From Alphaproteobacteria bacterium (GTDB lineage Bacteria > Pseudomonadota > Alphaproteobacteria > Caulobacterales > Maricaulaceae), in the NCBI GenBank assembly GCA_016124675.1, contig WGNG01000009.1, positions 62,001 through 126,000 of the forward strand: 64,000 bases of DNA. The letters are read 5' to 3'. Made by a program: the position numbers and the translations under genes. Each line of letters begins with the position of its first letter. Position 1 is the first letter of the stretch. This document shows, one piece after another, positions 15,236 to 34,463 of this stretch. Below the pieces are notes generated by a model. The model ran no database searches. It was not told the DNA's origin and was given only the letters and a program-made list of their open reading frames with translations.

Positions 15236-18184
15236 TCAGCCCCTGTCCGCGTCCTCCGCATCCAGCCCTTCAGGCGTCTCCGCCACGGTCTGGGGCAGGA
15301 TGGTCAGGCGGAAGGCGCGGTCCGGATCCAGCGTCTCGCGGGCGAGGCTGACGATTTCCTCCACGCTCACCTCGCGATAGTGCGCTTCGGCGGTGCGCAG
15401 ATCCTGCAGCCTTTGCGGGTCGGTCTGGGAACGCGCCAGCGCGTTGATCCAGAACGGGTTGCGCTCGCGCTGCTCGCGCAGTTGCTCCAGTATGGGCTGG
15501 CGGGCGCGCTGCAATTCGTCTTCGCTGACCTCGCCGGCCGCCATCACGCCGGCGATCTCGTCGATGATGGCGTACATGCGCGCAATGTCGTCCACCGCCA
15601 CATCAAGCCCCACCCAGACAAACCCGAAGCCGGGGAAGACCAGGGAGGGCTGGCCCTGCACGATCGGCGAATAGGTCGCCCCTTCGCGCTCGCGGAAACG
15701 CTCGGTGGCCTTGAGCGAGAACACTTCGGCCATCAGGTTGAGCGCCCGGCCCCGGCGGCGGTCCAGACCGTCGCCGACTGGGAAGTAGACATTGGCCATG
15801 CCCTGATAGTCCTGGCCGTCGAAATAGATCACCTCCGGCTCGGGCCCGGGCTCGGGGAAGCGCAGCTGGCGGTTGGCCGCGTAATCGGGCCAGCCTGCCG
15901 CGCGCTGCGGCAGGGCGCCGAAGGTCGCGGCGGCCACCTCTTCGGCGCGCTGCACCGTGATGTCACCCACAATGGTGATCTCCACCGGCGCCTCGGCCAA
16001 AGCCGGCGCGAGCATCTCGCGCGCGTGGTCCATGGTGAAGTCTGCGATCTCCTGCGTGGTGGGAAAGCCCCAGCGCGGATCACCACTGCGCAGCATGCGC
16101 CCGCCGCGATTGACGGCGACCTGCACGGCCTGCGCGTTCTGGCCGCGGCGCACTTCCTCGGCGATGGCGCGGAACTGGTTGAGCCCGTCCTCGCGCCAGC
16201 CCGGCGCCGTCATGAACGCGGCCAGAACCTGCATCTGCAGTTCAAAGTCTGACGGGGTCGTGGCGTTGGAGAAGAAGAAGCTCTCCTCGCCCACGCCCAG
16301 GCCATAGCCCACCGAGCGGCCCGCCAGCAGGCGCTGCAGATCGTCCCGGTCATGGGCTTCCAGCCCGCCGCCGCCAAAGGCGGCGCCCAGGATCGAGCCG
16401 GCCGCGGGAACCGGCTGGTCGGTCATGTCCCCGGCGCCGAAATCGACGCGCACGCGCACCACGCGCGATTCAAAGTCAGTGGGCTTCACATTCACCCGTA
16501 CGCCATTGGCGAAGGTCAGGCGGGTGACGCCGAACTCATCGCCCGTGTCGCGCGCAACCACCTCGCCGGCGGGTCCGAAATCGGTGTAGGCGAACGCACC
16601 CGAACCGGCCTCCGCGGGCGGGTCGACCCGCTCGGCGGTGGACGCGAGCCAGGCTTCGCGCACCGCCGCCTCGCCATCGGCGAGATCCTCGTTGAGGGCG
16701 ACCATGACGTGGGGCGGCGCCGCCGCCCAGGCCTCGCGGAACGCCGCTTCGACCCGCGCGACGGTGATGGAGTCTTCGAGAGCGTCAAACCACTCGCGCA
16801 CAAAGTCGGGATGGTTGAACACCGATCCGCGCAGCCAGCTCGACCAGAGGCTATCGGCCAGGCTGGTGGTCTGGCGGGTGGACGCCTGATCGGCGGCGTT
16901 GCGCACGGCGGTGCGCGTATTGGCCAGCTGCTCGTCAAGCTCGCTGCGGGTGAAGCCATGCTCGAGCGCACGGCGCAGCTCCTGCTCCACCATCGCCACG
17001 CCCTCGCGCCAGCGGTCCGGCGAGGACACGGCGAACACGCCTGCGCGCGTGGCCATATCAAACTCGCTGACATAGGACAGGCTGGCCTGAACCAGCGGAG
17101 AATCGCCGCGATTGATGCGCGCCTGCAGGCGGCGCTGCACGATGGACTGGCCAAGCTGGCGCAGCAGCGCCTGCTCGCGCGCTTCGCGCGTGTCCAGCGC
17201 GCCCGGGCCGGGCTCGACCATGTCCACCGTGATCAGGGTGAACACGCCCGGATCATGGAAGAAGCCGAAGCGGGGCCCGTCCGCGCGGGTCACCGAGCCC
17301 GGATCAGGATCCGCGCCCGGCTCGCCCGGCTGGGTCCAGCTGGCGAAGCCTTCAACCCGCTCCACCTCCAGGCCCGGCACGCTGATATCGAAGCCGTCGC
17401 GGATCATCGCCTCGACCTGGCCGCTATCAAAATCGCCCGTCACCACGAGCAGCGCCCGCTCCGGCCGGTAATACGCCTGGTAATAGCGCACGAAGGCCTC
17501 ACGCGGCGCGGTCTCGATCACGCCGGTCAGGCCGATCGGATCGCGCTCGGGCACGCGCGTGCCGGGATAAAGGAAGCGGTAATAGGCCGACAGGAAACGG
17601 TTGACCGGCGTATTGCGGAACCGCTCCTCGCCCAGGATGACGCCCCGCTCGGACTCTATTTCCGCCTCCGCAAAGGTAAGCTGCGACGCCGTTTCGCGCA
17701 TCAGGAACAGGGCGACCTTGAGCAGATCCTCATTGGCCTGCGGCAGGTTGAGCTGATAGCCGACCACCTCATGCCCGGTGAAGGCGTTGGTGTCCGGACC
17801 AAAGGCAAGGCCGTAGCGCTCCAGAAGGCGCACCATCTCGTTGCGCGGCACGTTGGTCGAGCCCTTGAAAGCCATATGCTCGATGAAATGCGCCAGCCCG
17901 CGCTGATCCTCATCCTCGGCCAGCGAACCGGCATCGAGGACGAGACGCACCGCAGCGGTGTTCGACGGGGTGGCATTGGGCATGACGGCATAGCGCATGC
18001 CGTTTTCCAGCACGCCATAGCGCACGCCCGGATCGGCAGGGATGTCGCTGGCCTCGTGGGGGAAGTCGGCCGCCTCGAACGCGGCGCGCAGATCGGCCGG
18101 CGGCGCGTCCGGCTCCCCGCAGCCCGCCATCGCCAGCCAGCCCAGCGCCGCAAGCGGCGCCAGCACATTGCGCCAGTTCATCAT
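15236..18184 (-). CDS. M16 family (insulinase/pitrilysin-like) zinc protease, lipoprotein
   Basis: A 982-residue double-length M16 protease. The signal peptide ends in a lipobox-like AMAGC (Cys22), so it is probably anchored in the outer or inner membrane facing the periplasm. The inverted zinc motif HFIEH is at residues 99-103, and the distal Glu is in the EIESERGVILGE segment near 180. Four M16 repeats follow, the second half lacking the zinc motif as is usual. ATG 18184 is chosen (GAGG eight bases upstream); a second ATG follows at once. The likely role is degradation of periplasmic peptides. Confidence 0.9.
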   Translation of the reverse strand: MMNWRNVLAPLAALGWLAMAGCGEPDAPPADLRAAFEAADFPHEASDIPADPGVRYGVLENGMRYAVMPNATPSNTAAVRLVLDAGSLAEDEDQRGLAHFIEHMAFKGSTNVPRNEMVRLLERYGLAFGPDTNAFTGHEVVGYQLNLPQANEDLLKVALFLMRETASQLTFAEAEIESERGVILGEERFRNTPVNRFLSAYYRFLYPGTRVPERDPIGLTGVIETAPREAFVRYYQAYYRPERALLVVTGDFDSGQVEAMIRDGFDISVPGLEVERVEGFASWTQPGEPGADPDPGSVTRADGPRFGFFHDPGVFTLITVDMVEPGPGALDTREAREQALLRQLGQSIVQRRLQARINRGDSPLVQASLSYVSEFDMATRAGVFAVSSPDRWREGVAMVEQELRRALEHGFTRSELDEQLANTRTAVRNAADQASTRQTTSLADSLWSSWLRGSVFNHPDFVREWFDALEDSITVARVEAAFREAWAAAPPHVMVALNEDLADGEAAVREAWLASTAERVDPPAEAGSGAFAYTDFGPAGEVVARDTGDEFGVTRLTFANGVRVNVKPTDFESRVVRVRVDFGAGDMTDQPVPAAGSILGAAFGGGGLEAHDRDDLQRLLAGRSVGYGLGVGEESFFFSNATTPSDFELQMQVLAAFMTAPGWREDGLNQFRAIAEEVRRGQNAQAVQVAVNRGGRMLRSGDPRWGFPTTQEIADFTMDHAREMLAPALAEAPVEITIVGDITVQRAEEVAAATFGALPQRAAGWPDYAANRQLRFPEPGPEPEVIYFDGQDYQGMANVYFPVGDGLDRRRGRALNLMAEVFSLKATERFREREGATYSPIVQGQPSLVFPGFGFVWVGLDVAVDDIARMYAIIDEIAGVMAAGEVSEDELQRARQPILEQLREQRERNPFWINALARSQTDPQRLQDLRTAEAHYREVSVEEIVSLARETLDPDRAFRLTILPQTVAETPEGLDAEDADRG

Positions 18185-18268
18185 CGCACATCCTCTACAG
18201 CCCACCCGCGAGTGCGGAGGATAGGCGCCCGGGGCCGCGCAGCAAATGAAATTGCAGACACGCGCCGG

Positions 18269-20119
18269 TCAGGCTGGCTCCAGCACTCCGGCGAGCGTCT
18301 CGATGGGATCATGCTCTGCAACCCAGTGGCCGGGCGCGACCTCGATCAGCTTGGGCCGGTATTGCTCGGCGTCGGGATCATCGATCAGTTTCGACTTCAG
18401 GAAGCGCAGCTGCGCGCGGCTGTCGAGGGGGCTCGGAAGATCGCCGGACAGCTTGATGCGCTGGCGCGACTTCTCGATGGACGGGTCCGGGATCGGCGCG
18501 GCGCTGATCAGCGCGCGGGTATAGGGATGGCGCGCGTCGGAGTAGATCGTGTCGCGGTCGGCCAGCTCCACCACCCGGCCCAGATACAGCACCATGACCC
18601 GGTGGGAGACCTCGCGCACCACCGACAGATCGTGGGAAATGAACAGCATGGACAGGCCGAGATCGTCCTGCAGTCCGACCAGCAGCTCGATGATCTGGGC
18701 CTGGATGGAGACGTCCAGCGCACTGACCGCCTCGTCGCAGATCACCAGCTTGGGCTGCAGGATCATCGCCCGGGCGATGCCCACGCGCTGGTTCTGCCCG
18801 CCGGACAGCTCGTGGGGATAGCGGTTGATCATGTCGGGATCGAGTCCGACGCGCTCCATCATGGCGCGCACCTCGGTTTGGCGCTCGCGCCCGCTCATGA
18901 AGCGGCGATAGGTCAGCATGGGTTCGGCGATCGACGCGCCGATGGTCATGCGCGGATTGAGCGAGGCCATCGGGTCCTGGAACACGATCTGCAAATCCTG
19001 GCGCGCGGCGCGCATCTGCTTGCGGTTCAGCGCCAGCAAATCCTTGCCGATCCAGCTCACCGCCCCGGCCTTGGCGGGGACCAGGCGCAGGACGGCGCGC
19101 GCCAGCGTGGACTTGCCGCAACCGGACTCGCCCACAATCCCCAGCGTCTCGCCCGGCAGAAGCGCGAAGCTCAGCCCGTCCACCGCCTTGAGCGGCTTGG
19201 TCCTGGGAAACAGCCCGCCGCCAATTTTCACGGGGAACTGGACTTTCAGGTCCACCGCCTCCAGCAAAGGCTGATCGGTGTCAGCGCCCTTGCGCGGCGT
19301 GGCCCCGGTCAGCTTGCCCGGCTGGTCGAGACGCGGCATCGCATCGAGCAGCATGCGCGTATAGGCGTGGCGGGGCGTGCTGAAGATGTCGTGCACCTCG
19401 CCGGTTTCCACATAGGCGCCGTCCTTCATCACCTGGACGCGGTCGGCCATGCGCGCCACCACGCCCATGTCATGGGTGATCAGGGCGATCGCCGCGCCGG
19501 TCTCGGCCTTGAGTTCATCCATGATGTCCAGCACCTGGGCCTGGACCGTCACGTCGAGCGCCGTGGTCGGCTCGTCGGCGATCAACAGGTCCGGCTCGCA
19601 CAGCATGGCCATGGCGATCATGACGCGCTGGCGCATGCCGCCCGACAGCTCATGGGGATACTGGCCCAGCCGCCGGCGCGCTTCCGGAATCCGCACGCGC
19701 TCCAGCCAGTCCACGCAGCGCTTCTCAGCCGCCGCGCCGCGCAGCTTCAGGTGCACGTCGAGCACTTCCTTGAGCTGGTCGCCGACGCGCATATGCGGGG
19801 TCAGCGAGGTCAGCGGATCCTGGAAGATCATGGTCATCTTGCGCCCGCGCACCCGGTTGAGCCTGTGCGGCGCGAGATTGAGAATCTCCTCGCCCGCATA
19901 GCGGATCGAGCCGGTCGCCTTGCCATTCGACGCCAGGAGGCCCATCGCCGCCAGAAAGGTCTGGCTCTTGCCCGAGCCGGACTCGCCCACAACGGCCAGG
20001 CATTCGCCCCGTTTGATCTCCAGGCTGACGCCGCGCACTGCGTTGACGGCGCCGTCAGGCGTGTCGAAGGTGACCTGCAGGTCGGACACCTGAAAGATTG
20101 GCGAGGTCGTCTGGGTCAA
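18269..20119 (-). CDS. oligopeptide/dipeptide-type ABC transporter, two fused ATPase domains
   Basis: A 616-residue fusion of two ABC ATPases of the Opp/Dpp class (YejF-like). Domain 1 has Walker A GESGSGKS near residue 41 and signature LSGGMRQR. Domain 2 has Walker [10 protein letters not shown] near residue 336 and signature LSGGQNQR. Each is followed by the oligopeptide-transporter C-terminal cap ([24 protein letters not shown]). It would energise uptake of peptides or related solutes. No permease or binding-protein gene lies beside it in this window, which is unusual for the family. Confidence 0.92.
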
Positions 20120-20258
20120 GGCGCAAATCCTGAAATCGTGGGCGAGGGATCGTCAGAACGCAGCATACCGCCTCGATTGGCCATGGCCAGCGCGCGCGGC
20201 GCCCGTGCTGGCGCGCCTGCCCCAACGCCGCAGGACAAACCCGCTGTATACTGACGCC

Positions 20259-23941: not shown

Positions 23942-24017
<76 letters not shown>

Positions 24018-24130
24018 GACCGCTTCCTTTTCAGCCTCCGCAGGGTTTTGCCAGACCATGACGCCTCGATTCGGCGCCTGGCGGCTTGAACGCATCCCCA
24101 AGGAACGTTACGAGACACGCAGCTATGGAC

Positions 24131-24146
24131 GGCCTGTTGACAGGCC
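24131..24146. promoter_or_regulatory. hairpin in the tRNA-galE gap
   Basis: A perfect six-base-pair stem (GGCCTG / CAGGCC) around TTGA, about 35 bases before the galE start. It may be a tRNA transcript end or a leader structure for galE. There is no T-run after it. Confidence 0.35.
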
Positions 24147-24179
24147 GCCGCCCTGGGGGGGGATTGATTGGGGGGACGA

Positions 24180-25187
24180 ATGACTGTTCTTGTAACAGGC
24201 GGGGCAGGTTATATCGGCTCACACATGACGCTTGCGCTGCTGGATGCAGGCGAGTGCGTGGTGGTCCTGGACAATCTGGTCACCGGGTTTGACTGGGCGG
24301 TCGATCCCCGCGCCCACTTTGTGCGCGGCGATGCCGGGAACATGGAGCTCGTGTCCAGGCTGATCGCCGAGCACGCCATCTCAGACATCATCCATTTCGC
24401 CGGATCGGTGGTGGTCCCGGACTCGGTGGCCGATCCCTTGAGCTATTACGCCAACAACACCGCCGCTTCTCGCAATCTCATCGAGGCCGCCGCCGTAAAC
24501 GGCGTGAAGCGCTTCATCTTCTCCTCCACCGCCGCTGTTTACGGCATGGCCGGCGACGAGCCGGTGAGCGAGGACGCCTCTCTGGCGCCTCTGTCGCCCT
24601 ATGGCCGCTCCAAGCTCATGACCGAATGGATGCTGGCCGACACCGCCGCCACCGGGGCGCTGGAGTTCGGCGTGCTGCGCTATTTCAACGTCGCGGGCGC
24701 CGACCCGCAGGGACGCTCAGGCCAGTCGACAGCGAAGGCGACCCATCTCATCAAGGCCGCCTGCCAGGCCGCGCTGGGCGTGCGCGAGCGCCTCGATATC
24801 TTCGGGACTGATTATCCCACGCGTGACGGAACGTGTGTTCGCGACTATATTCATGTCAGCGATCTGGTGGACGCCCACGCCATGGTGCTCGCCCACTTGC
24901 GTTCCGGACACGGCAGCGTCACGCTCAATTGCGGCTATGGCCGCGGCGCCAGCGTGCGCGAGGTCGTCGAGACGGTCAAAGCCATCTGCGGCATTGACTT
25001 TGAAGTGCGCGAAACGGAGCGCCGACCCGGCGATCCCGCCGCGATCGTGGCGAGCGCGCAACGCCTGAGGACCGAGCTGAACTGGACGCCGAAATTTGAC
25101 GATTTGACGCAGATTGTCGCCTCCGCCTGGGCCTGGGAGCAGGCTTTGCGCAGGCGAAACGCTCCTGAACCTTCCGACGCTATGTGA
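24180..25187 (+). CDS. galE: UDP-glucose 4-epimerase
   Basis: A 335-residue extended SDR that interconverts UDP-glucose and UDP-galactose. The NAD motif GGAGYIGS starts at residue 7, FAGSVVVPDSV is near 80, the catalytic SSTAAVYG and YGRSK (YxxxK) pair follows, and FNVAGADP marks the sugar-binding region. ATG 24180 follows a G-rich ribosome site. It lies 95 bases upstream of the giant glycosyltransferase gene on the same strand, so it may supply a galactose-type nucleotide sugar for that protein. Confidence 0.93.
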   Translation: MTVLVTGGAGYIGSHMTLALLDAGECVVVLDNLVTGFDWAVDPRAHFVRGDAGNMELVSRLIAEHAISDIIHFAGSVVVPDSVADPLSYYANNTAASRNLIEAAAVNGVKRFIFSSTAAVYGMAGDEPVSEDASLAPLSPYGRSKLMTEWMLADTAATGALEFGVLRYFNVAGADPQGRSGQSTAKATHLIKAACQAALGVRERLDIFGTDYPTRDGTCVRDYIHVSDLVDAHAMVLAHLRSGHGSVTLNCGYGRGASVREVVETVKAICGIDFEVRETERRPGDPAAIVASAQRLRTELNWTPKFDDLTQIVASAWAWEQALRRRNAPEPSDAM

Positions 25188-25282
25188 GCCGGCCCCTTGC
25201 TGGCCCAGATCAGATGCCTGTCTGACGTGACGACCTTGCCTGACGCGCCTGTTTTTGTGCAGATAGAGGACGATTGGACCCG

Positions 25283-28200
25283 ATGAACCAGCCGGTGATG
25301 AGCGCTACGCCGCTTGAGCAGGAATACCAGGACCTTTTGGCCAAGCTGCCGAGCCGGGCGCCGATCTATCTGCCGACCGACAAGATCCCGCTCGAGGACA
25401 AGATTCGCGGCGTCCGCCACGTCATTCAGATCTACAAGCATGATCTTGATGCGGTTTACCGGCCCCGCCTGCGCGCTCTGCGCGAACAATACAAGGGCCG
25501 AAAGCGCTGCTTCCTGATCGGCAACGGGCCCAGCCTGAACGAAACCGATCTGGCCGTGCTCAAGGACGAAGTCACGTTCGCGGTGAACGGCTTCTTCCTC
25601 AAGGCCGCCGACCTCGAGTGGAAACCCACCTTCTACGTTGTTGAAGACCATCTGGTCGCCGAAGACCGCGCGTCGTGGATCAATGACTTCAAGGGGCCGA
25701 TCAAGCTGTTTCCAGCCTATTTGGGCTATATGTTCGAGGCCAGCGAAGACACGCTCTTTTACAACCACCGCCCGCGCAAGAGCTATCCTCACGGCTTCGA
25801 CTTCTCGATGGAAGCCGACAAGATCACCTATACCGGCTGCACCGTCACCTTCTCCATGATGCAGCTTGCAGCCTATCTGGGCTTTGAGGAGATTTACCTC
25901 ATCGGCGTGGATGCGAGCTACGCCATCCCGGAGGACGCCAAGGAGAGCAAGGATTACGGCGTGGGCGTGCTGGACATGAAGTCCGACGACCCCAACCATT
26001 TCGACCCGAATTATTTCGGCAAGGGGTTCCGCTGGCACGACCCCCAGGTCGACAAGATGATCGAGGCTTATGCCGAGGCGCGCCGCACGCTCGAAGGCAC
26101 CGGCCAGATGATCTATAATGCCGGGATTGGCGGCCAGCTTGAAGTGTTCGAGCGCCGCTCCTTCCATAGCCTGTTTCCGAACGCGCGCCCGCCCGAAGTC
26201 GTGCTGGCCCAGGGCCATGCGCGCGTCTATCCGCGGCTCTTGCTCCTGGACATGACGCCGTTCGCCAATGGCACCGCCACCGGCGAAATCAAGGCCAATC
26301 TGTTCGCCGGCTGGCCCGCGGACCGCTTGCTGCAGGTGGCGCGCCAAGGCAAGGACGGGTTCGCGCTGTCGCGTCCGGACGCCGGCAAGGGCTTCGCGAC
26401 GAAGCCGTGCTCAGAGCTTGCGGCCCGTGAAGCCGCCCTGGGCTTCCAGGCTGACGTCGTGCTCTACCGCCCCGTTCCGGACGTACCCTATCTGCATGCT
26501 CTCGCCATGAGCCTGGTGAAGGAAATCGGCAAGCCGGCTGTGGCCTGGGTGATGGACGACTGGCCGCACGACCTGGCCGAGCGCGATCCCGAGCAATGGC
26601 GCGTGCTGAGGCCAGACCTTCTCGGCCTGCTCGAGCATGCCCACACGCGGCTGTCGATTTGCGATGCCATGTCATCGGCGTTCGAAGCGCGCTATGGCGT
26701 TCCTTTCAAGGCGCTGGCCAATGGCGTGCGGGTGAGCGACTGGCCCGAGCGCCCGGCCCATTCCGGGCGCCGGCTGCGCATCCGCTATGCCGGCGGCCTG
26801 GCCGCCAACATGCAGCGCGCCAGCGTGCTGCGCCTGGCGCGCGCTGTGGAGAGGCTGGGGAAGTCCGGCCACGCGATATCGCTGGAGATCAACACCCAGC
26901 CCTGGTGGATGCGCGAGGCGAAGGATGATTTCGCGTCCTTCGAGTTTACCTCAGTGACCGACGAGACGCGCCCGCTGGACGTGTACCGTGGCTGGCTTCG
27001 CCGCGCGGACGCCGTGGTGATCGCCTATAACTTTGATGAAGATACGCTGCGCTATGTGCGCTATTCGATGGCCAACAAGATGCCCGAATGCCTGGCCTCC
27101 GGCGCGGTGCTGCTGGCCCACGGACCTGCGGACGCGGCCACGATCGGGTATCTGAAGGAGCATGGCCTGGGCCTGGTCGTCGATCAGGAGGACGAAGCCG
27201 CGCTTGAAAAGGCGCTGCTGGACCTGCTCAACGACCCCGACCGCCGCCAGGCCCTCAGCGAGGCTGCGCGGGCTTTCGTCTTTGAAAACCACAACCTGGA
27301 TATCCTGCACGAGCGTCTGCGCCAGATCGTCGTGGACGCCGCCCAGTCTGACACGGGGGCAATCCCCCTGGCGGTCCGCCAGGATGAGCCGCCGGTCATC
27401 GCGCCGCCGCCTCAGCCGGCCGCTTCTCCCGCGCCTCGGGATGCAGTGGTGACAGCGTCCCAGCCCGCAGCTGCAGCACCTGCACCTGCGCCTGCCCCTC
27501 AGCCTCAACCTGTGAAAGCGCCGGAGCCTGCTTCCGCCCCGAGCACCAGCGAAACGCCATCGCGGCCGGCGCCTCAGCCGGCGTTCACGGGCATTACCCC
27601 TCCAAAGCCGCCGCTCAGCCGTCCCTGGTATGCGCCGGCCGGCGATGCGATGCGCCAGATCGCGCCCGGCCTCTTCCCAATGCTGCGGCAAGCACGCCGC
27701 GCCCTCTGGAAATCCGGCAGTTCGGTTCTGATCGCGGCCGGGGGCGTTGTGGCGTTGGGCGTTCTGCTGTTCGCGGCGTTCGGGCCCGGGCTTCCGGGGA
27801 CGCGTCTGGTTTTGGCCGGCGCCGTGCTGGGCTTTGGCGTCGTGCTTGGCGTCGGCGCCCTCGGCTTGCGCTTGCGCAAAGCCGTCAGGACATTGTCAGC
27901 CGAAAACCGTCAGCTGGCGGAGGAAATCGCCCGCATTCACGACCTCGCCGCCGGACGCGAACGGCGCGTCGAGCGCCTCTTGAGTGAGCAGATCGACTTC
28001 GAAGACCGGTTAAGCCAGGTCAGGGGCCTGCAGGCGCGGGGCGCCCACGCGCTGGAAGCGCAGCTGGCCGCACTCAAGGATGAGCACGGCCGCACGCTGG
28101 CCGCCCTCAAGGCCGAGATATCGCGCAGCAGCGCCTCCGCCCGGTCCGGCGCTGAAGCCGCCTTGCGCGAGGAGCTGAGCCATCTCGAGGGCAAGCAGGC

Positions 28201-30415
28201 CCGGATCACGCAAATGCTCAGAAGCGAGATCGCCAACGCCGGCGCGTCGGCGCGTTCCGGCGCAGAAGACGCGCTGCGCGCCGAGCTGGCGCAGCTGGAG
28301 GACCGGCAGGCCCGGCTGGCCGGCGCCCTGAGGCAGGAGATCGCCAACGCCGGCGCCGCTGCACGTTCCGGCGCAGAAGACGCGCTGCGCGCCGAGCTGG
28401 CGCAGCTGGAGGACCGGCAGGCCCGGCTGGCCGGCGCCCTGAAGCAGGAAATCGCCGACGCCGGCGCAGCGGCGCGTTCCGGCGCTGAAGACGCGCTGCG
28501 CGCCGAGCTGGCCAGACTTGAGGCGGAACAGGCGCGGACTGCGCAAAGCCTTAAGGACGAAATCTCCCAGGCCAGCGAAGCAGCCCGGGAAGGGGCGCAG
28601 GCGGGCTTGCGCGCCGAACTCGCGCGGCTGGAGTCCGAGCAAGCGAGAGTGACGAACGTCCTCAAGGGTGAGATTGCCGAGATCGGTAGAAAGGCGCTGT
28701 CTGGCGGCGAGGCCACGCTCAGGTCGGAGATCGCTGCGCTTGAGGCCCGGCTCGAAGCCGGTCAGTCGTCAAAGACCGCAGCGCTCAAGGACGAGCTCAA
28801 GCAGCTGCAGGATGCGCTGGAGCAGAGACTGATGGCCCGCGCCGCCAATGCGGCCGCCAGCTTCAGCCAGGCGGCCCAGCTTGCCCGGCAGCGCGAGTTG
28901 GAGCTGAAGGCGCGGATCGACGAGATCGGCGAAAAGGCCCTCGCTGGCGGCGACGCCGCACTGAAGGCTGAGATCGAAGCCCTCGAGACGCGCATGCGTG
29001 ACAGCCATGCCGCGAATGCGGCAGCGCTGAGAGACGAGCTCAGGCGCTTGCAGGAAGCGCTCGAGCAAAAGCTCCTGGCCCGTGCTGCAAGCACAGCCGC
29101 CAGCTTTGGTCAGGCGTCACAGCTGGCCCGGCAGCGCGAGGCCGAGCTGCGCGAGCAGATCGCCGCCCTGCAGCAGGCGGTCAAGAAAACCGAAGAGGAG
29201 GCGCTGACGGCGCAAACGCTCGCAAAGGCGGGCGACGAGACGCTGCACGAGGAGATCCGGGCGGTCCGCCAGGGACTGGAACAGCGTCTGCGTGCCGAGG
29301 TGGATGAGGCGACCAGTGAATCCTTCGGGCGTCTCACCGAGCGCCTTGAGGCTGTCGCGCTCACAGCCGGCGAGGCGGATGCAGGCCTGCGCCAGGAACT
29401 CGAGGCCCTGAAGACGGCGCTGGAGCAGAAGCTTGAAGCGCGCACCGGCGCCGCGATGGCCAGCCTTGACCGGGTCTCCCAGGGCTCCAGGCAGCGCGAA
29501 GCGGAGCTGCAGGCGCAGATCGCCGCCCTGCAACAGGCGCTCAAACGCACCGAAGAGATCGCCTCTGCGGCCCAGTCGAGCGCCCGGGAGGGCGGCGATA
29601 CGCTGCGCGAGGAGCTGAAGGCCGTGCGGGAGGGATCGGCCGAGATGGGCGCCACGCTGCAAGCGTCGCTCAAAAATGTTGCAACGCGCCTTAGCACAGC
29701 CGAAGCGCATTCTGTCTCCCTGCATGTCACCAGCGCCTTGCGTGCCATGCGGCCCCTCTGGACCGGCGGCAGCGCAGTGCAGGCGCTCAAGGAGCAGGCC
29801 GAGGTCGAGCACGGTCATGAGCTCCTCATGGCGGTGCTGGCCGATGAGGAGAAGGCCTCGCCCGGCAAGTTGTCAGGCAAGACCCTGATTGAGATCGGAA
29901 CCACCCGGGAAAATGTACCGGCTCAGGCCTCCACTCAGAAACTCGGCGTCTTTTCCGCCCTCACAGGACTGCGCTTCATTACCGTGGACATGGATCCGGC
30001 CAACACGACAGCGGCCAGAAACATCCTGCGCTACATCAATCCGGGGGCGCAGGCGCTGACGCAGAAGGGCGAGACCTATTTGCGCCAGCACCCTGCGCCA
30101 CTTGAATATGTCTATCTGGACGCGTTCGACTACGATCACGGCAAACATTCCGACGAGCGTCAGGCCAGCTATCGCAAGTATCTGGGAACCGACATCAATG
30201 ATGCGGCCTGCTGGAAAATGCACGAGGACTGCGCCGATACGATCATTGCGCGCATGGTCAAAGGCGGGATCGTTGTCCTGGACGACACGTGGACCGATGA
30301 GGAAGGACGCTATGCCGGCAAGGGCAAGCTTGCCGCGCCGCTGCTGCTGGAAAGCGGCTTCAGGTTGATCGCCCGGACCCGCAAGACCCTGGCCCTGCGC
30401 CGCGGTGACGGATAG
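25283..30415 (+). CDS. giant fusion: DUF115 + glycosyltransferase + membrane hairpin + coiled coil + methyltransferase-like domain
   Basis: 1710 residues. Residues 72-290 are a DUF115 (MAF/MptE-like) module: GNGPSL at 80-85, then FAVNGFFLKA and YLIGVDASYA. Residues 305-690 form a GT-B-like glycosyltransferase (PAVAWVMDDWPHD, IRYAGGLA, MANKMPECLASGAVLLAHG). A Pro/Ala-rich linker (690-805) leads to two hydrophobic helices (about 812-834 and 842-866), then some 600 residues of Ala/Glu/Leu-rich coiled coil with internal repeats. The C-terminal domain (about 1480-1710) resembles class I methyltransferases (TLIEIGTTRE, FITVDMDP, GGIVVLDDTW). Two helices would put both ends in the cytoplasm. ATG 25283 is favoured; TTG 25274 and ATG 25298 are alternatives. 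I infer a role in surface or flagellar glycan assembly near galE, possibly with the coil acting as a length ruler. Confidence 0.8.
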   Translation: MNQPVMSATPLEQEYQDLLAKLPSRAPIYLPTDKIPLEDKIRGVRHVIQIYKHDLDAVYRPRLRALREQYKGRKRCFLIGNGPSLNETDLAVLKDEVTFAVNGFFLKAADLEWKPTFYVVEDHLVAEDRASWINDFKGPIKLFPAYLGYMFEASEDTLFYNHRPRKSYPHGFDFSMEADKITYTGCTVTFSMMQLAAYLGFEEIYLIGVDASYAIPEDAKESKDYGVGVLDMKSDDPNHFDPNYFGKGFRWHDPQVDKMIEAYAEARRTLEGTGQMIYNAGIGGQLEVFERRSFHSLFPNARPPEVVLAQGHARVYPRLLLLDMTPFANGTATGEIKANLFAGWPADRLLQVARQGKDGFALSRPDAGKGFATKPCSELAAREAALGFQADVVLYRPVPDVPYLHALAMSLVKEIGKPAVAWVMDDWPHDLAERDPEQWRVLRPDLLGLLEHAHTRLSICDAMSSAFEARYGVPFKALANGVRVSDWPERPAHSGRRLRIRYAGGLAANMQRASVLRLARAVERLGKSGHAISLEINTQPWWMREAKDDFASFEFTSVTDETRPLDVYRGWLRRADAVVIAYNFDEDTLRYVRYSMANKMPECLASGAVLLAHGPADAATIGYLKEHGLGLVVDQEDEAALEKALLDLLNDPDRRQALSEAARAFVFENHNLDILHERLRQIVVDAAQSDTGAIPLAVRQDEPPVIAPPPQPAASPAPRDAVVTASQPAAAAPAPAPAPQPQPVKAPEPASAPSTSETPSRPAPQPAFTGITPPKPPLSRPWYAPAGDAMRQIAPGLFPMLRQARRALWKSGSSVLIAAGGVVALGVLLFAAFGPGLPGTRLVLAGAVLGFGVVLGVGALGLRLRKAVRTLSAENRQLAEEIARIHDLAAGRERRVERLLSEQIDFEDRLSQVRGLQARGAHALEAQLAALKDEHGRTLAALKAEISRSSASARSGAEAALREELSHLEGKQARITQMLRSEIANAGASARSGAEDALRAELAQLEDRQARLAGALRQEIANAGAAARSGAEDALRAELAQLEDRQARLAGALKQEIADAGAAARSGAEDALRAELARLEAEQARTAQSLKDEISQASEAAREGAQAGLRAELARLESEQARVTNVLKGEIAEIGRKALSGGEATLRSEIAALEARLEAGQSSKTAALKDELKQLQDALEQRLMARAANAAASFSQAAQLARQRELELKARIDEIGEKALAGGDAALKAEIEALETRMRDSHAANAAALRDELRRLQEALEQKLLARAASTAASFGQASQLARQREAELREQIAALQQAVKKTEEEALTAQTLAKAGDETLHEEIRAVRQGLEQRLRAEVDEATSESFGRLTERLEAVALTAGEADAGLRQELEALKTALEQKLEARTGAAMASLDRVSQGSRQREAELQAQIAALQQALKRTEEIASAAQSSAREGGDTLREELKAVREGSAEMGATLQASLKNVATRLSTAEAHSVSLHVTSALRAMRPLWTGGSAVQALKEQAEVEHGHELLMAVLADEEKASPGKLSGKTLIEIGTTRENVPAQASTQKLGVFSALTGLRFITVDMDPANTTAARNILRYINPGAQALTQKGETYLRQHPAPLEYVYLDAFDYDHGKHSDERQASYRKYLGTDINDAACWKMHEDCADTIIARMVKGGIVVLDDTWTDEEGRYAGKGKLAAPLLLESGFRLIARTRKTLALRRGDG
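28150..28705 (+). repeat. 111-bp tandem repeats encoding 37-residue coiled-coil units
   Basis: Within the giant gene, about five tandem units of 111 bases (37 residues) carry the pattern ARSGAEDALRAELAQLE then QEIANAG. The copies at 28261-28371 and 28372-28482 differ at only about six of 111 positions; the flanking copies are more diverged. A second, longer repeat of 243 bases (81 residues), starting near 28694 and 28937 (ALSGGEATLRSEI, ALAGGDAALKAEI), follows. This suggests growth of the coil by unequal recombination. Confidence 0.9.
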
Positions 30416-30473
30416 CCCCACCCACCCGCGCCCGCATACCAATCCTTTACGCAAGCGGGCGCATCATCGCGTC

Positions 30474-31628: not shown

Positions 31629-34463
31629 CTATCCGAACGCCCGGTAATAATGGCTGATCGCCACGGTAATCTGCAAGATCATCGGGTGCAGCTCGGCCAG
31701 CGGCGCGACGATGCGCGCCTGAATTTCCGGATAGCCGCGCCGCGCGGGCTCGTCGGCGCCGGTCTGCTCGTCAATCGCATCGAGCAGGTCCAGGCCCGGC
31801 CGCGACGCGGGAAAAATCTCCTGAAGCGCGGTTACGGCTTCGGGCAGGCGCAGGGCGAACACCAGATCGATCAGGTCCTCGCGCATCAGATCATGGCGGC
31901 GTGAAAACGCCGGCAGGCGTGAAATGATCAGGAAAGCCTGCATGATCAGCGCCTGCCGGATGGCGTGCAGCGCCTCCACCGCGCGCCGGTCGGGATCGTC
32001 GCGCCAGGCATGGCCGGAGCCGTCCGCGATGCGGTCAAACCGCATCAGATCCGCCGACAGATGATTACTGAGCCGGGTCAGCGCCGTCTGGCGCGACTGG
32101 TCGGACAGACGCCCCGCCAGGGCCAGAAAGGCGCGGCCGGCGGCTTCGGACTGCGCTGCGGCCGCCCGCCCGGTCCACTCGCTGGCGTCGAACAGGCGCG
32201 CATAGCCGCGCAGCGCATTGAGGCTGGTCAGGGTGCGCGCCCGCGAAATCATGCCGCGCAGCGCCGCCATGCGCGGCGAGCGCTCCAGAAACGCCGCCAT
32301 GCGTTCAGGCTCCGAGCCGATGGCGGCGCCCAGCCCGCCCGACACATTCACCGGAATGCCCAGCTGCTGCAGCGCCGCGTTATGCGGGATGGCGCGCAGC
32401 ATGGACAGATCGAGGCTCTGGCCCGGCGCGCCCGGCCGCTTGGCGCGGCGCGAGCCGCTGCGCACCAGCATGCTGGGTGCAAACGCCGTCACCGCCGTGC
32501 GGTAATCGGCATTGTCGAACAACGCCTCCTGCCAGGCTTTCAGCGCCCGGTAGACGTCCCAAGTATAGTCGATCTCAGCATAGAACGGATCGCCGCCCGG
32601 CGCGTCCGGCGCTGCCAGCAGATGGCGCGCCGTCGCCATGATCACTGATCGCGCCAGCTCCGGCCGGGCGAAGTGCACAAATCCGTCCCCGCCCTGATAG
32701 CTGGTCTCGTGGATCACCGGCGCGCCGGCCGCGGCGAACCTGGCCCGCGCCCAGGGGGTGAGCAGATGATCGAGCCGCCCGGTGAACCCGCCGGGATGCG
32801 CGCCGCGCCCCATGGATTCGCCATGGGTGTTGAACACCACCACCGCCACGCCCTTCACGCCATAGCGCGCCAGCGCCCGGGCGGTGAGGATGTGCAGGCG
32901 CTCGATGGCGAGCTGCGCGCCCGCCTGACCCATGAAGCGGCCCGAGTCCGAATAGCCCAGCTGGATGGCGAGCCGCCCGCGTCCGGTGATGTAGTCGCGA
33001 TAGACCGGCTCGGCCAGCAGGCGCTCGATCAGCCGCCCCCCGCGCTCCAGCGCTTCGGGCGTCTCGAACAACGGCGAGATGTCGACCTGATCGGCCACGC
33101 CGTAAAGCCGGGCGAGATACAGCGCCCCCATCACCGTCGCCGCCGTCTCGCATTCGGCGATCAGGAAGCGGATGGGCGCGCCGTCGTCCACGTGCTTGAG
33201 AAGCTGGGCGCACAGCATGAACTGGCGCCGGGCCGTCATCTGCTCGAGAAACACCGAAGCGAAGCTGACTGCGCGCACCGTCGCCCCGGCCGCCCGCTCG
33301 GCGGCGCGGGTGAGGGCCAGGCGCCCGAAATCGTCTGAATCATCCTCCAGCCCCAGATCGGCGCGCACCGCGCCGCGCAGCTGGGCTGCGTTGATGCGCA
33401 GATGGACATGCGCCGCGCCCAGGCCCGCCGCCTTCATCTCCGCGCGCAACAGCACCAGCCGCGCCGCCACGTCATCGTCTGCGTCACCGATGGCGCGATC
33501 GAGTTCGGCGACGGGCCCGGAGAGGCTGGTCAGGCGCTCTGGATACGCCGCCGTCAGCGCATTGGCCGCGCGCACCACCGCGGACGGGTCATCGAGGTCG
33601 GCTTCGAACAGGGCCGCGTGCGCCGCGCTCGCCTGGCCCGCTGCACGCAGCCGTGCGGCGAGCGGCGCCAGGCCCGAGGCGCCCGACGCTTCAGCCAGCG
33701 CCGCATAGCGCATGAGCTGGCGGGATTTTTCCTGCAGGCGCAACGCGATGGAGCGGCCCCAGTGAATATCGGTGCGGCCATCAAGATCATATCCCACCCA
33801 GCTTGCCAGCGAGATCAGGTCGGGATCGAGCGTGCGCCAGCGGTCCGGGAAGGCCTTGCGCGCCACATCCAGCGCCAGCGCGTTGAGGGCGGTGAGCGCA
33901 TCGCGCGCCGCCTCCACCGCAGCCATCGCCTCGTCATGCTCATGGATCAAGGTGACATCATCGTCGGGCCCGTGGACATGACCCGCGCCCACCAGCGCGT
34001 CCGCCTCGCCCGTCACCGCCGCGCCGGCGAGCGTATCGCGCACCGTGCGCGACAGGGCGAAAGTCGGGTGAGCGGTGAACACGATCCCGCCGCGCTTGCG
34101 CGTCACCACAGCGGCGAAGGCGTCAAACCCGTCCCCCGCCAAGGCTTCAAGCTGGCTGCGCACATCGCGTTCCGCCACGCCTGACAGGCCCTCTGCATGG
34201 AGCGCCGCAAGCGCGCGCGCCCGCGCCGCCAGCCCCACATCGGCGAAATGCTGGATCAGGGCTTTAAGCCCCTCCACCGACACCGCCCCCCGGCGCAGGC
34301 CGGAAAACAGCTCGGCGGCCAGATCGCCCACCGGATTGACCAGCGGCGCGTCCCAGTCCTCGCCCCATCCACCCCCCAGCGCCTTGAGGCAGTAGGCCGC
34401 CAGCGCCTCCGGCGCGCCGGGCAGGCGCGCGCCCAAGGCGCTCTCGGTGTCGTTCAGAGGCAT
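31629..34463 (-). CDS. divergent phosphoenolpyruvate carboxylase-like protein
   Basis: 944 residues with clear PEPC ancestry: VFTAHPTF with His132, AQLGYSDSGRFMG near 502, THGESMGRGAHPGG near 541, and LRAIPHNAALQQLG near 660. Canonical enzymes have TAHPTE, GYSDSxKDAG and FHGRGGxxGRGG and end in QNTG. Here the Glu, the Lys, the first Arg-Gly-Gly of the loop and the C-terminal NTG (replaced by RAFG) have changed. It may carboxylate PEP with altered kinetics, act on another substrate, or be regulatory. No frameshift or stop is seen and the length is normal, so it is not decaying. Confidence 0.85.
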   Translation of the reverse strand: MPLNDTESALGARLPGAPEALAAYCLKALGGGWGEDWDAPLVNPVGDLAAELFSGLRRGAVSVEGLKALIQHFADVGLAARARALAALHAEGLSGVAERDVRSQLEALAGDGFDAFAAVVTRKRGGIVFTAHPTFALSRTVRDTLAGAAVTGEADALVGAGHVHGPDDDVTLIHEHDEAMAAVEAARDALTALNALALDVARKAFPDRWRTLDPDLISLASWVGYDLDGRTDIHWGRSIALRLQEKSRQLMRYAALAEASGASGLAPLAARLRAAGQASAAHAALFEADLDDPSAVVRAANALTAAYPERLTSLSGPVAELDRAIGDADDDVAARLVLLRAEMKAAGLGAAHVHLRINAAQLRGAVRADLGLEDDSDDFGRLALTRAAERAAGATVRAVSFASVFLEQMTARRQFMLCAQLLKHVDDGAPIRFLIAECETAATVMGALYLARLYGVADQVDISPLFETPEALERGGRLIERLLAEPVYRDYITGRGRLAIQLGYSDSGRFMGQAGAQLAIERLHILTARALARYGVKGVAVVVFNTHGESMGRGAHPGGFTGRLDHLLTPWARARFAAAGAPVIHETSYQGGDGFVHFARPELARSVIMATARHLLAAPDAPGGDPFYAEIDYTWDVYRALKAWQEALFDNADYRTAVTAFAPSMLVRSGSRRAKRPGAPGQSLDLSMLRAIPHNAALQQLGIPVNVSGGLGAAIGSEPERMAAFLERSPRMAALRGMISRARTLTSLNALRGYARLFDASEWTGRAAAAQSEAAGRAFLALAGRLSDQSRQTALTRLSNHLSADLMRFDRIADGSGHAWRDDPDRRAVEALHAIRQALIMQAFLIISRLPAFSRRHDLMREDLIDLVFALRLPEAVTALQEIFPASRPGLDLLDAIDEQTGADEPARRGYPEIQARIVAPLAELHPMILQITVAISHYYRAFG

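What the first reader, a model, noticed from the sequence alone, without database searches (positions are those of the whole stretch)
25283..30415. Giant fusion protein: two sugar-transfer modules, membrane hairpin, repetitive coiled coil and methyltransferase
One 1710-residue reading frame joins a DUF115 module, a GT-B-like glycosyltransferase, a Pro-rich linker, two membrane helices, about 600 residues of coiled coil and a class I methyltransferase-like domain. In known O-antigen systems (WbdD/WbdA) a methylating terminator linked to a coiled coil acts as a ruler that sets chain length, but the polymerase is separate. Here transferase, ruler-like coil and possible terminating methyltransferase appear in one polypeptide beside galE. 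I infer a self-contained glycan polymerising and length-setting machine, which I do not know to be described. The similarity to WbdD is architectural only.
Basis: partly seen in the sequence, partly recalled or inferred. Interest (0 to 1): 0.8.

Follow-up and report, generated by a model that had tools for sequence, protein, structure and literature searches.

The report
Modular membrane-anchored glycan-building and capping enzyme
One very large bacterial protein carries sugar-transferring enzymes at one end, a membrane anchor and a long rod in the middle, and a methyltransferase-like enzyme at the far end; related species keep the anchor and rod but swap the enzymes at both ends, as expected of a machine that builds and caps a surface sugar chain.

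Summary
The frame is real: 1710 aa, window 25283-30415. It holds a DUF115/Maf-like module, a GT-B-like module, a Pro-rich linker, a two-helix membrane hairpin, about 600 aa of proline-free coil with 37-aa repeats, and a C-terminal domain predicted to fold as a class I methyltransferase. What looks new is the variant. Hairpin and coil form a chassis shared across the order; heads and tails are exchanged. Tails are two kinds of methyltransferase or a sulfotransferase (8 of 8 sulfotransferase tails pass Pfam's cut-off). In five related genomes differently assembled alleles sit beside galE at one tRNA-Ala site; a sixth has the empty site. Coil length ranges from 219 to 699 aa. Best reading: a WbbB-like glycan polymerase-ruler-terminator in inverted order with swappable methyl or sulfate caps. 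Catalysis and length control are untested; no exporter was seen at the locus and the genome has no Wzt_C match.

The parts
23942..24017 (+). tRNA-Ala(CGC); the island begins 4 nt after its 3' end
   Evidence: ARAGORN; alignment with the empty site of G012
24022..30424 (.). accessory island (galE + mega-gene), replaced by 224 bases in G012
   Evidence: blastn window against L082: flanks align at 81.5% and 84.3%, gap here; gene order
24168..25187 (+). galE, UDP-glucose 4-epimerase
   Evidence: TIGR01179 421 bits, cut-off 262; orthologues 63-88% identical in 7 of 19 loci examined
25283..30415 (+). mega-gene, 1710 aa: DUF115 - GT-B-like - Pro linker - membrane hairpin - coil - methyltransferase-fold tail
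25442..25924 (+). DUF115/Maf-like module (residues 54-214)
   Evidence: PF01973 over cut-off; profile of 5 heads: 9 of 9 PDB hits are Maf 5mu5 or sialyltransferases, E 0.008-0.073
26201..27352 (+). GT-B-like glycosyltransferase module (residues 307-690)
   Evidence: PF13524; weak PDB profile match to 3okc mannosyltransferase, E 0.0025
27380..27619 (+). Pro/Ala-rich linker (residues 700-779)
   Evidence: translation
27620..27892 (+). chassis: RPWYAP motif and two-helix membrane hairpin (hydrophobic within residues 811-865)
   Evidence: hydropathy; alignment A2; profile searches
27893..29713 (+). coil (residues 871-1477)
   Evidence: no proline, hydrophobic period 3.68, 0 of 300 shuffles
28148..28702 (+). 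five strong 37-aa repeats (residues 956-1140)
   Evidence: profile count; DNA repeats
29714..30412 (+). tail A, methyltransferase-fold domain (residues 1478-1710)
   Evidence: AlphaFold, Foldseek, viral relatives

Best explanation
A membrane-bound glycan assembly enzyme that works like the WbbB/WbdD coiled-coil terminators. The N-terminal DUF115 and GT-B modules build, or help to build, a lipid-linked glycan at the cytoplasmic face, probably with galactose-type sugars supplied through the adjacent GalE. A two-helix hairpin anchors them, with both ends in the cytoplasm. The coil projects from the membrane and holds a sugar O-methyltransferase at a set distance; when the chain reaches it the tail caps the end and stops growth, so coil length sets chain length. 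In relatives the cap is a sulfate or comes from another methyltransferase, and the head makes another sugar sequence, so one gene at a tRNA-Ala site acts as a module-swapping glycan-type locus. Shown by sequence or predicted fold: modules, order, chassis, swapping, synteny, empty site, methyltransferase fold. Inferred: catalysis, topology, polymerisation, capping, ruler function.
For: Tail fold: MeT1, a polysaccharide methyltransferase, is the best PDB match (its role in PMC9883506, passages). Tail swapping: among 16 chassis proteins measured, 3 tail A, 8 sulfotransferase, 2 Methyltransf_24, 3 none; in 13 of 13 tailed proteins the tail follows the coil (families). One Methyltransf_24 tail (L066) also passes the cut-offs of TylF and of rhamnosyl O-methyltransferase/CmcI. 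Free-standing viral relatives of tail A; in the one locus scanned, neighbours match methyltransferase, dehydrogenase and glycosyltransferase PHROGs. Coil lengths 219-699 aa and 0-7 copies of the 37-aa repeat in six close relatives. Same locus, different modules in 5 genomes; empty site in a sixth. Head and chassis occur in the same 5 of 15 genus members (Fisher p 0.0003, ignoring kinship). In G009, which lacks the chassis, two DUF115 proteins lie within 10 kb on either side of a Wzt_C protein on one contig, so DUF115 modules go with ABC-exported glycans in this genus.
Against: No activity shown. The usual SAM loop is not conserved in tail A (EIGxTRE instead). 3 of 16 chassis proteins have a coil and no tail. 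Only two transferase modules here; C15 has DUF115 alone before its chassis, with GT modules in a neighbour protein. In G005 and G008 the head is a separate protein. No ABC exporter among the neighbours scanned and no Wzt_C in the five carriers of the locus. An inverse link of head size and coil length was not robust.
Confidence: 0.45

Rival explanations
1. Tethered decorator without a ruler: the coil is an oligomerising scaffold and reach arm, and the tail methylates or sulfates sugars of a glycan whose length is set elsewhere.
For: Tail-less members with coils exist (G040, G280, G367). FkbM methyltransferase modules sit in several heads, so modification need not be terminal. Coil-bearing proteins are also described as membrane-associated scaffolds (PMC11231755).
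Against: In 13 of 13 tailed proteins the tail is at the far end of the coil; coil length differs by whole repeats between alleles of one locus; the published analogues measure chain length (PMC11231755).
Confidence: 0.3
2. Protein (flagellin or surface-layer) glycosylation by a Maf-like DUF115 enzyme with accessory domains.
For: DUF115 is the Maf family; the head profile's best PDB hit is 5mu5, a Magnetospirillum Maf by my recall. Caulobacter modifies flagellins with pseudaminic acid (PMC7591256, passages).
Against: Caulobacter crescentus has no Maf orthologue and uses FlmG (PMC7591256). No flagellar family among the window proteins scanned (19 of about 55 called). Eight of the nine PDB hits are lipooligosaccharide-type sialyltransferases. 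A second DUF115 protein (L005:8508-10637) lies near a PseC-like aminotransferase gene and is a better candidate.
Confidence: 0.1
3. Tail A is a non-catalytic fold relic that only binds glycan or partners.
For: Atypical SAM loop, no Pfam hit, no convincing PDB sequence relative.
Against: 57 invariant columns across 2 bacterial and 3 viral copies at about 41% identity; other alleles carry domains of known enzyme families in its place.
Confidence: 0.1

Closest known systems
WbbB (Raoultella terrigena / Klebsiella O12; PMC11231755 Discussion part 1; PMC9587256 abstract start in a listing)
   Same: Polymerase GT modules, coiled-coil ruler and terminator in one polypeptide
   Different: WbbB has the terminator (beta-Kdo transferase) at the N-terminus and the polymerase at the C-terminus; here the order is inverted, an integral hairpin lies between polymerase and coil, and the terminator is a methyltransferase or, in relatives, a sulfotransferase. 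No WbbB entry among the PDB hits of the heads
Klebsiella O7 ORF6 (PMC11231755)
   Same: Methyltransferase, coil and GT modules in one protein
   Different: O7 has a kinase beside the methyltransferase, N-terminal, and GT2 modules; here methyltransferase alone, C-terminal
WbdD (E. coli O8/O9a; PMC3482155, passages)
   Same: Methyltransferase joined to a coil; the O8 enzyme is methyltransferase only; coil-bearing region about 250 aa
   Different: WbdD has no polymerase and recruits WbdA; tail A has no WbdD entry among its PDB sequence hits
Maf flagellin glycosyltransferases (DUF115, PF01973)
   Same: Same Pfam family for the head
   Different: Fused to GT, chassis, coil and tail; no flagellar family among the neighbours scanned

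Membership tests
Coiled-coil polymerase-ruler-terminator proteins (WbdD/WbbB kind) | Terminating enzyme at the far end of a long coil, away from polymerase modules | tested here: met
   Order in the window protein and in 13 of 13 tailed relatives measured; that the tail terminates is inferred
Coiled-coil polymerase-ruler-terminator proteins (WbdD/WbbB kind) | Sequence homology of terminator or polymerase to WbdD/WbbB | tested here: not met
   No such entry among the PDB sequence hits; that the PDB copy holds both is recalled, not checked
Coiled-coil polymerase-ruler-terminator proteins (WbdD/WbbB kind) | Polysaccharide ABC exporter (Wzm/Wzt) | tested here: inconclusive
   Not at the locus. Contig C2 has an ABC2_membrane protein beside an ATPase whose best match is Wzt/RfbE, 239 bits under a cut-off of 400
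Coiled-coil polymerase-ruler-terminator proteins (WbdD/WbbB kind) | Wzt_C cap-recognition domain (as in O9a; not universal) | tested here: not met
   2 of 15 genus genomes match PF14524 (G009, G012); none of the five carriers
Coiled-coil polymerase-ruler-terminator proteins (WbdD/WbbB kind) | Coil length sets glycan length | not testable with these tools
   Only coil-length variation was measured
DUF115/Maf (PF01973) | Pfam profile over its cut-off | tested here: met
   45.9 bits vs 34.6
Class I SAM methyltransferase (tail A) | Class I methyltransferase fold | tested here: met
   Model pLDDT 82, pTM 0.85; best PDB match E 6.3e-8, TM about 0.5, rmsd 6.0
Class I SAM methyltransferase (tail A) | E/DxGxGxG SAM-binding loop | tested here: not met
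   Conserved motif is EIGxTRE in 5 of 5 sequences; the loop as given in PMC11231755
Sulfotransferase (tails of relatives, not in the window) | PF00685 over its cut-off | tested here: met
   8 of 8 tails; for L062 only the isolated tail (23.9 vs 22; whole protein 19.2)

The most novel reading that the evidence does not exclude
A single-gene, plug-and-play glycan-type locus: a shared membrane-hairpin and coil chassis on which different polymerase heads and different chain caps (methyl or sulfate) are exchanged as cassettes at a tRNA site, giving ruler-controlled polysaccharides that include sulfate-terminated ones.
Probability: 0.3. Interest if true: 0.82.

Novelty: new variant of a known kind. 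Interest (0 to 1): 0.62.

Why it matters
How coil length is turned into glycan length has been shown for only a few enterobacterial proteins. Here natural alleles of one locus differ in coil length, polymerase and cap, so ruler, polymerase and terminator could be tested as separable cassettes in environmental bacteria. A sulfotransferase in the terminator position would add a new kind of chain end, and exchanging whole modules inside one gene would be an unusually compact way to change surface glycan type, for example under phage pressure (inference).

Tried and rejected
Head size against coil length: looked inverse by eye among the 6 closest proteins, not robust (rho -0.52, p 0.08, n = 12 tailed; rho -0.22, p 0.43, n = 15); dropped. 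Classical Wzt_C-coupled export: not supported. Pterin kinase (the MptE name of PF01973, with folD nearby): rejected, because the head profile's PDB hits are Maf and sialyltransferases and folD lies in the flank outside the island. Integrative element: the island edge is at the tRNA 3' end, but no second copy of that end within 3 mismatches in the window; the genes seen in the island are galE and the mega-gene, and no integrase search was run; mobility stays open. The GT-B AlphaFold model was unusable (pLDDT 47.6). Tail A in other Alphaproteobacteria: 1 of 385 genomes of a class sample, its own; 2 of 41 relatives. PDB sequence search with the tail alignment gave 3 weak hits (E 0.059-1.2), two of them an unrelated bacterial effector and one an O-methyltransferase; not used.

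Rows dropped before counts: of 17 order-level genomes with a chassis hit, G248 and G337 (short partial matches) and the second G356 hit were not measured; G062 is cut by the contig end inside its coil; G149 (E 9e-4) is by my reading another, EAL-like protein. G260 is incomplete at its N-terminus and was left out of the correlations.

Full report
WHAT IS THERE. The open frame is as described: 1710 aa, 25283-30415. PF01973 (DUF115/Maf) passes its cut-off at residues 54-214; the GT-B-like module at 307-690 is weak in the window protein but passes in orthologues. A Pro-rich linker is followed by two hydrophobic helices within 811-865. Basic residues flank both outer ends of the hairpin, which by the positive-inside rule (my reading, not computed) puts head and coil in the cytoplasm. 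The rod has no proline in 612 residues and a hydrophobic period of 3.68, close to an 11-residue coil, with 0 of 300 shuffles as strong; in 15 of 16 proteins measured at most 3 of 300 shuffles reach the observed power (G216: 24 of 300).

THE TAIL. No Pfam hit, no meaningful NCBIfam hit and no PDB sequence hit for the single sequence; it matches PHROG 24975, of unknown function (40.3 bits). Three viral contigs encode free-standing relatives at 40-45% identity; in the one whose neighbours were scanned (L073) some match methyltransferase, dehydrogenase and glycosyltransferase PHROGs. With these in the alignment AlphaFold gave pLDDT 82 and pTM 0.85. Foldseek's best PDB match is Mycobacterium hassiacum MeT1 (E 6.3e-8, TM about 0.5, rmsd 6.0); of the 50 rows shown nearly all are methyltransferases by title or name, with exceptions such as AzeJ (8rye) and the unnamed TT0836 (1ufk). 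The fold class is therefore well supported and the specificity is not. MeT1 blocks the 1-OH of a mannan precursor (PMC9883506, passages). The usual SAM loop is not conserved: the motif is EIGxTRE in 5 of 5 sequences.

A FAMILY WITH A SHARED CHASSIS. A profile of the hairpin region (5 sequences) found 7 of 137 genomes of the family (one, G149, set aside) and 17 of 398 in an even draw of the order, 8 of 59 genera. Among 16 proteins measured the tail is tail A in 3, a sulfotransferase in 8, Methyltransf_24 in 2 and absent in 3. All 8 sulfotransferase tails and both Methyltransf_24 tails pass Pfam's cut-offs; for L062 this holds for the isolated tail (23.9 bits, cut-off 22), while its whole protein scored 19.2. 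The sulfotransferase profile's own PDB hits are individually weak (E 0.056-0.76); 13 of 14 are sulfotransferases. Heads combine DUF115, GT2, GT-B and FkbM methyltransferase modules. The G013 protein carries a window-like head (85% identical over 695 aa) followed by a G005-like head (69% over 824 aa), then chassis and sulfotransferase.

ONE LOCUS, MANY ALLELES. In G000 (window), G011, G013, G005 and G008 the order folD - YggT - tRNA-Ala(CGC) - galE - mega-gene - small ORF - PEP carboxylase is conserved. FolD and PEPC are about 80-95% identical between them while the mega-genes differ: window and G011 share heads (86%) but have different tails; window and G008 share tails (75.5%) but their heads give no BLAST match at 1e-12 over 120 aa or more. 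G012, with flanks 81.5% and 84.3% identical in DNA, has 224 bases in place of window 24022-30424, and the left break falls 4 nt after the tRNA. galE, head and tail (G+C 0.642, 0.638, 0.621) are poorer in G+C than folD and PEPC (0.707, 0.704), the coil is not (0.694). The second member of this genome (contig C15, 1458 aa, tail 83-84% identical) also has galE, a 973-aa GT fusion gene and a tRNA gene (Leu) beside it. No repeat of the tRNA end was found in the window. Head and chassis occur in the same 5 of 15 genus members; the head is fused in three and a separate 796-801 aa protein in two.

RULER-LIKE FEATURES. Coil lengths from LSAENR to the tail: window 607, C15 699, G011 522, G013 381, G008 292, G005 219. 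Copies of the 37-aa repeat over 8 bits, same order: 6, 2, 7, 3, 2, 0. WbdD's coil-bearing region is residues 460-708 (PMC3482155, passages). These are evolutionary hints, not proof of length control.

COMPARISON WITH THE KNOWN. PMC11231755 (abstract, passages and part 1 of 2 of the Discussion seen; [quoted passage not shown] So the principle is known; the inverted order, integral anchor, sulfotransferase tails and single-gene module swapping are the new elements. Literature searches on sulfotransferase with coil and chain length or terminators (4 papers, 9 papers), on Caulobacterales and Hyphomonas terms (none) and on the named carriers (8 of 86 papers listed) showed no title describing this family. 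The library is open-access only, and the DOI that I recalled for the original WbbB paper is not held; its details beyond PMC11231755 are recalled.

EXPORT. None seen among the neighbours scanned. Three ABC2_membrane proteins exist in the genome: one on contig C2 beside an ATPase whose best NCBIfam match is Wzt/RfbE of galactan export, under its cut-off; one on C15 with a DrrA-type ATPase; one on C21 like PRK15066 permeases, under its cut-off. Wzt_C is absent from the five carriers and present in G012, which has the empty site, and in G009. In G009 two DUF115 proteins lie on either side of the Wzt_C protein. This fits cap-independent ABC export or another route.

VERDICT. A real, modular, probably glycan-synthesising protein. 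I put 0.45 on polymerase-ruler-terminator, 0.3 on a tethered decorator without length control, and 0.1 each on protein glycosylation and on a non-catalytic tail.

Noticed in passing
L004:8419-16994 (contig C15 of the same genome): A second island-like set: galE, a 973-aa glycosyltransferase fusion gene and a 1458-aa chassis protein with the same tail, next to a tRNA-Leu gene.
   Followed up: partly
L073:3944-4504, L074:3992-4552, L075:3926-4486: Viral contigs carry free-standing relatives of tail A; in L073 near other glycan-type genes.
   Followed up: partly
L005:8508-10637 (contig C15): Another DUF115 protein (GT2 + DUF115, 709 aa) near glmS and a PseC-like aminotransferase gene.
   Followed up: partly
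window 31629-34463: The PEP carboxylase matches PF00311 over only 127 residues (65.7 bits) and is found in 6 of 15 genus genomes: a divergent, patchily held copy.
   Followed up: no
L027:3502-10638 (G013): A 2378-aa allele that looks like two heads in tandem, one window-like and one G005-like, before one chassis.
   Followed up: partly
window 16352-20254 (+): A 1300-aa open frame without Pfam hit lies antisense to an M16 peptidase and an ABC ATPase gene; probably a chance frame in GC-rich DNA.
   Followed up: no
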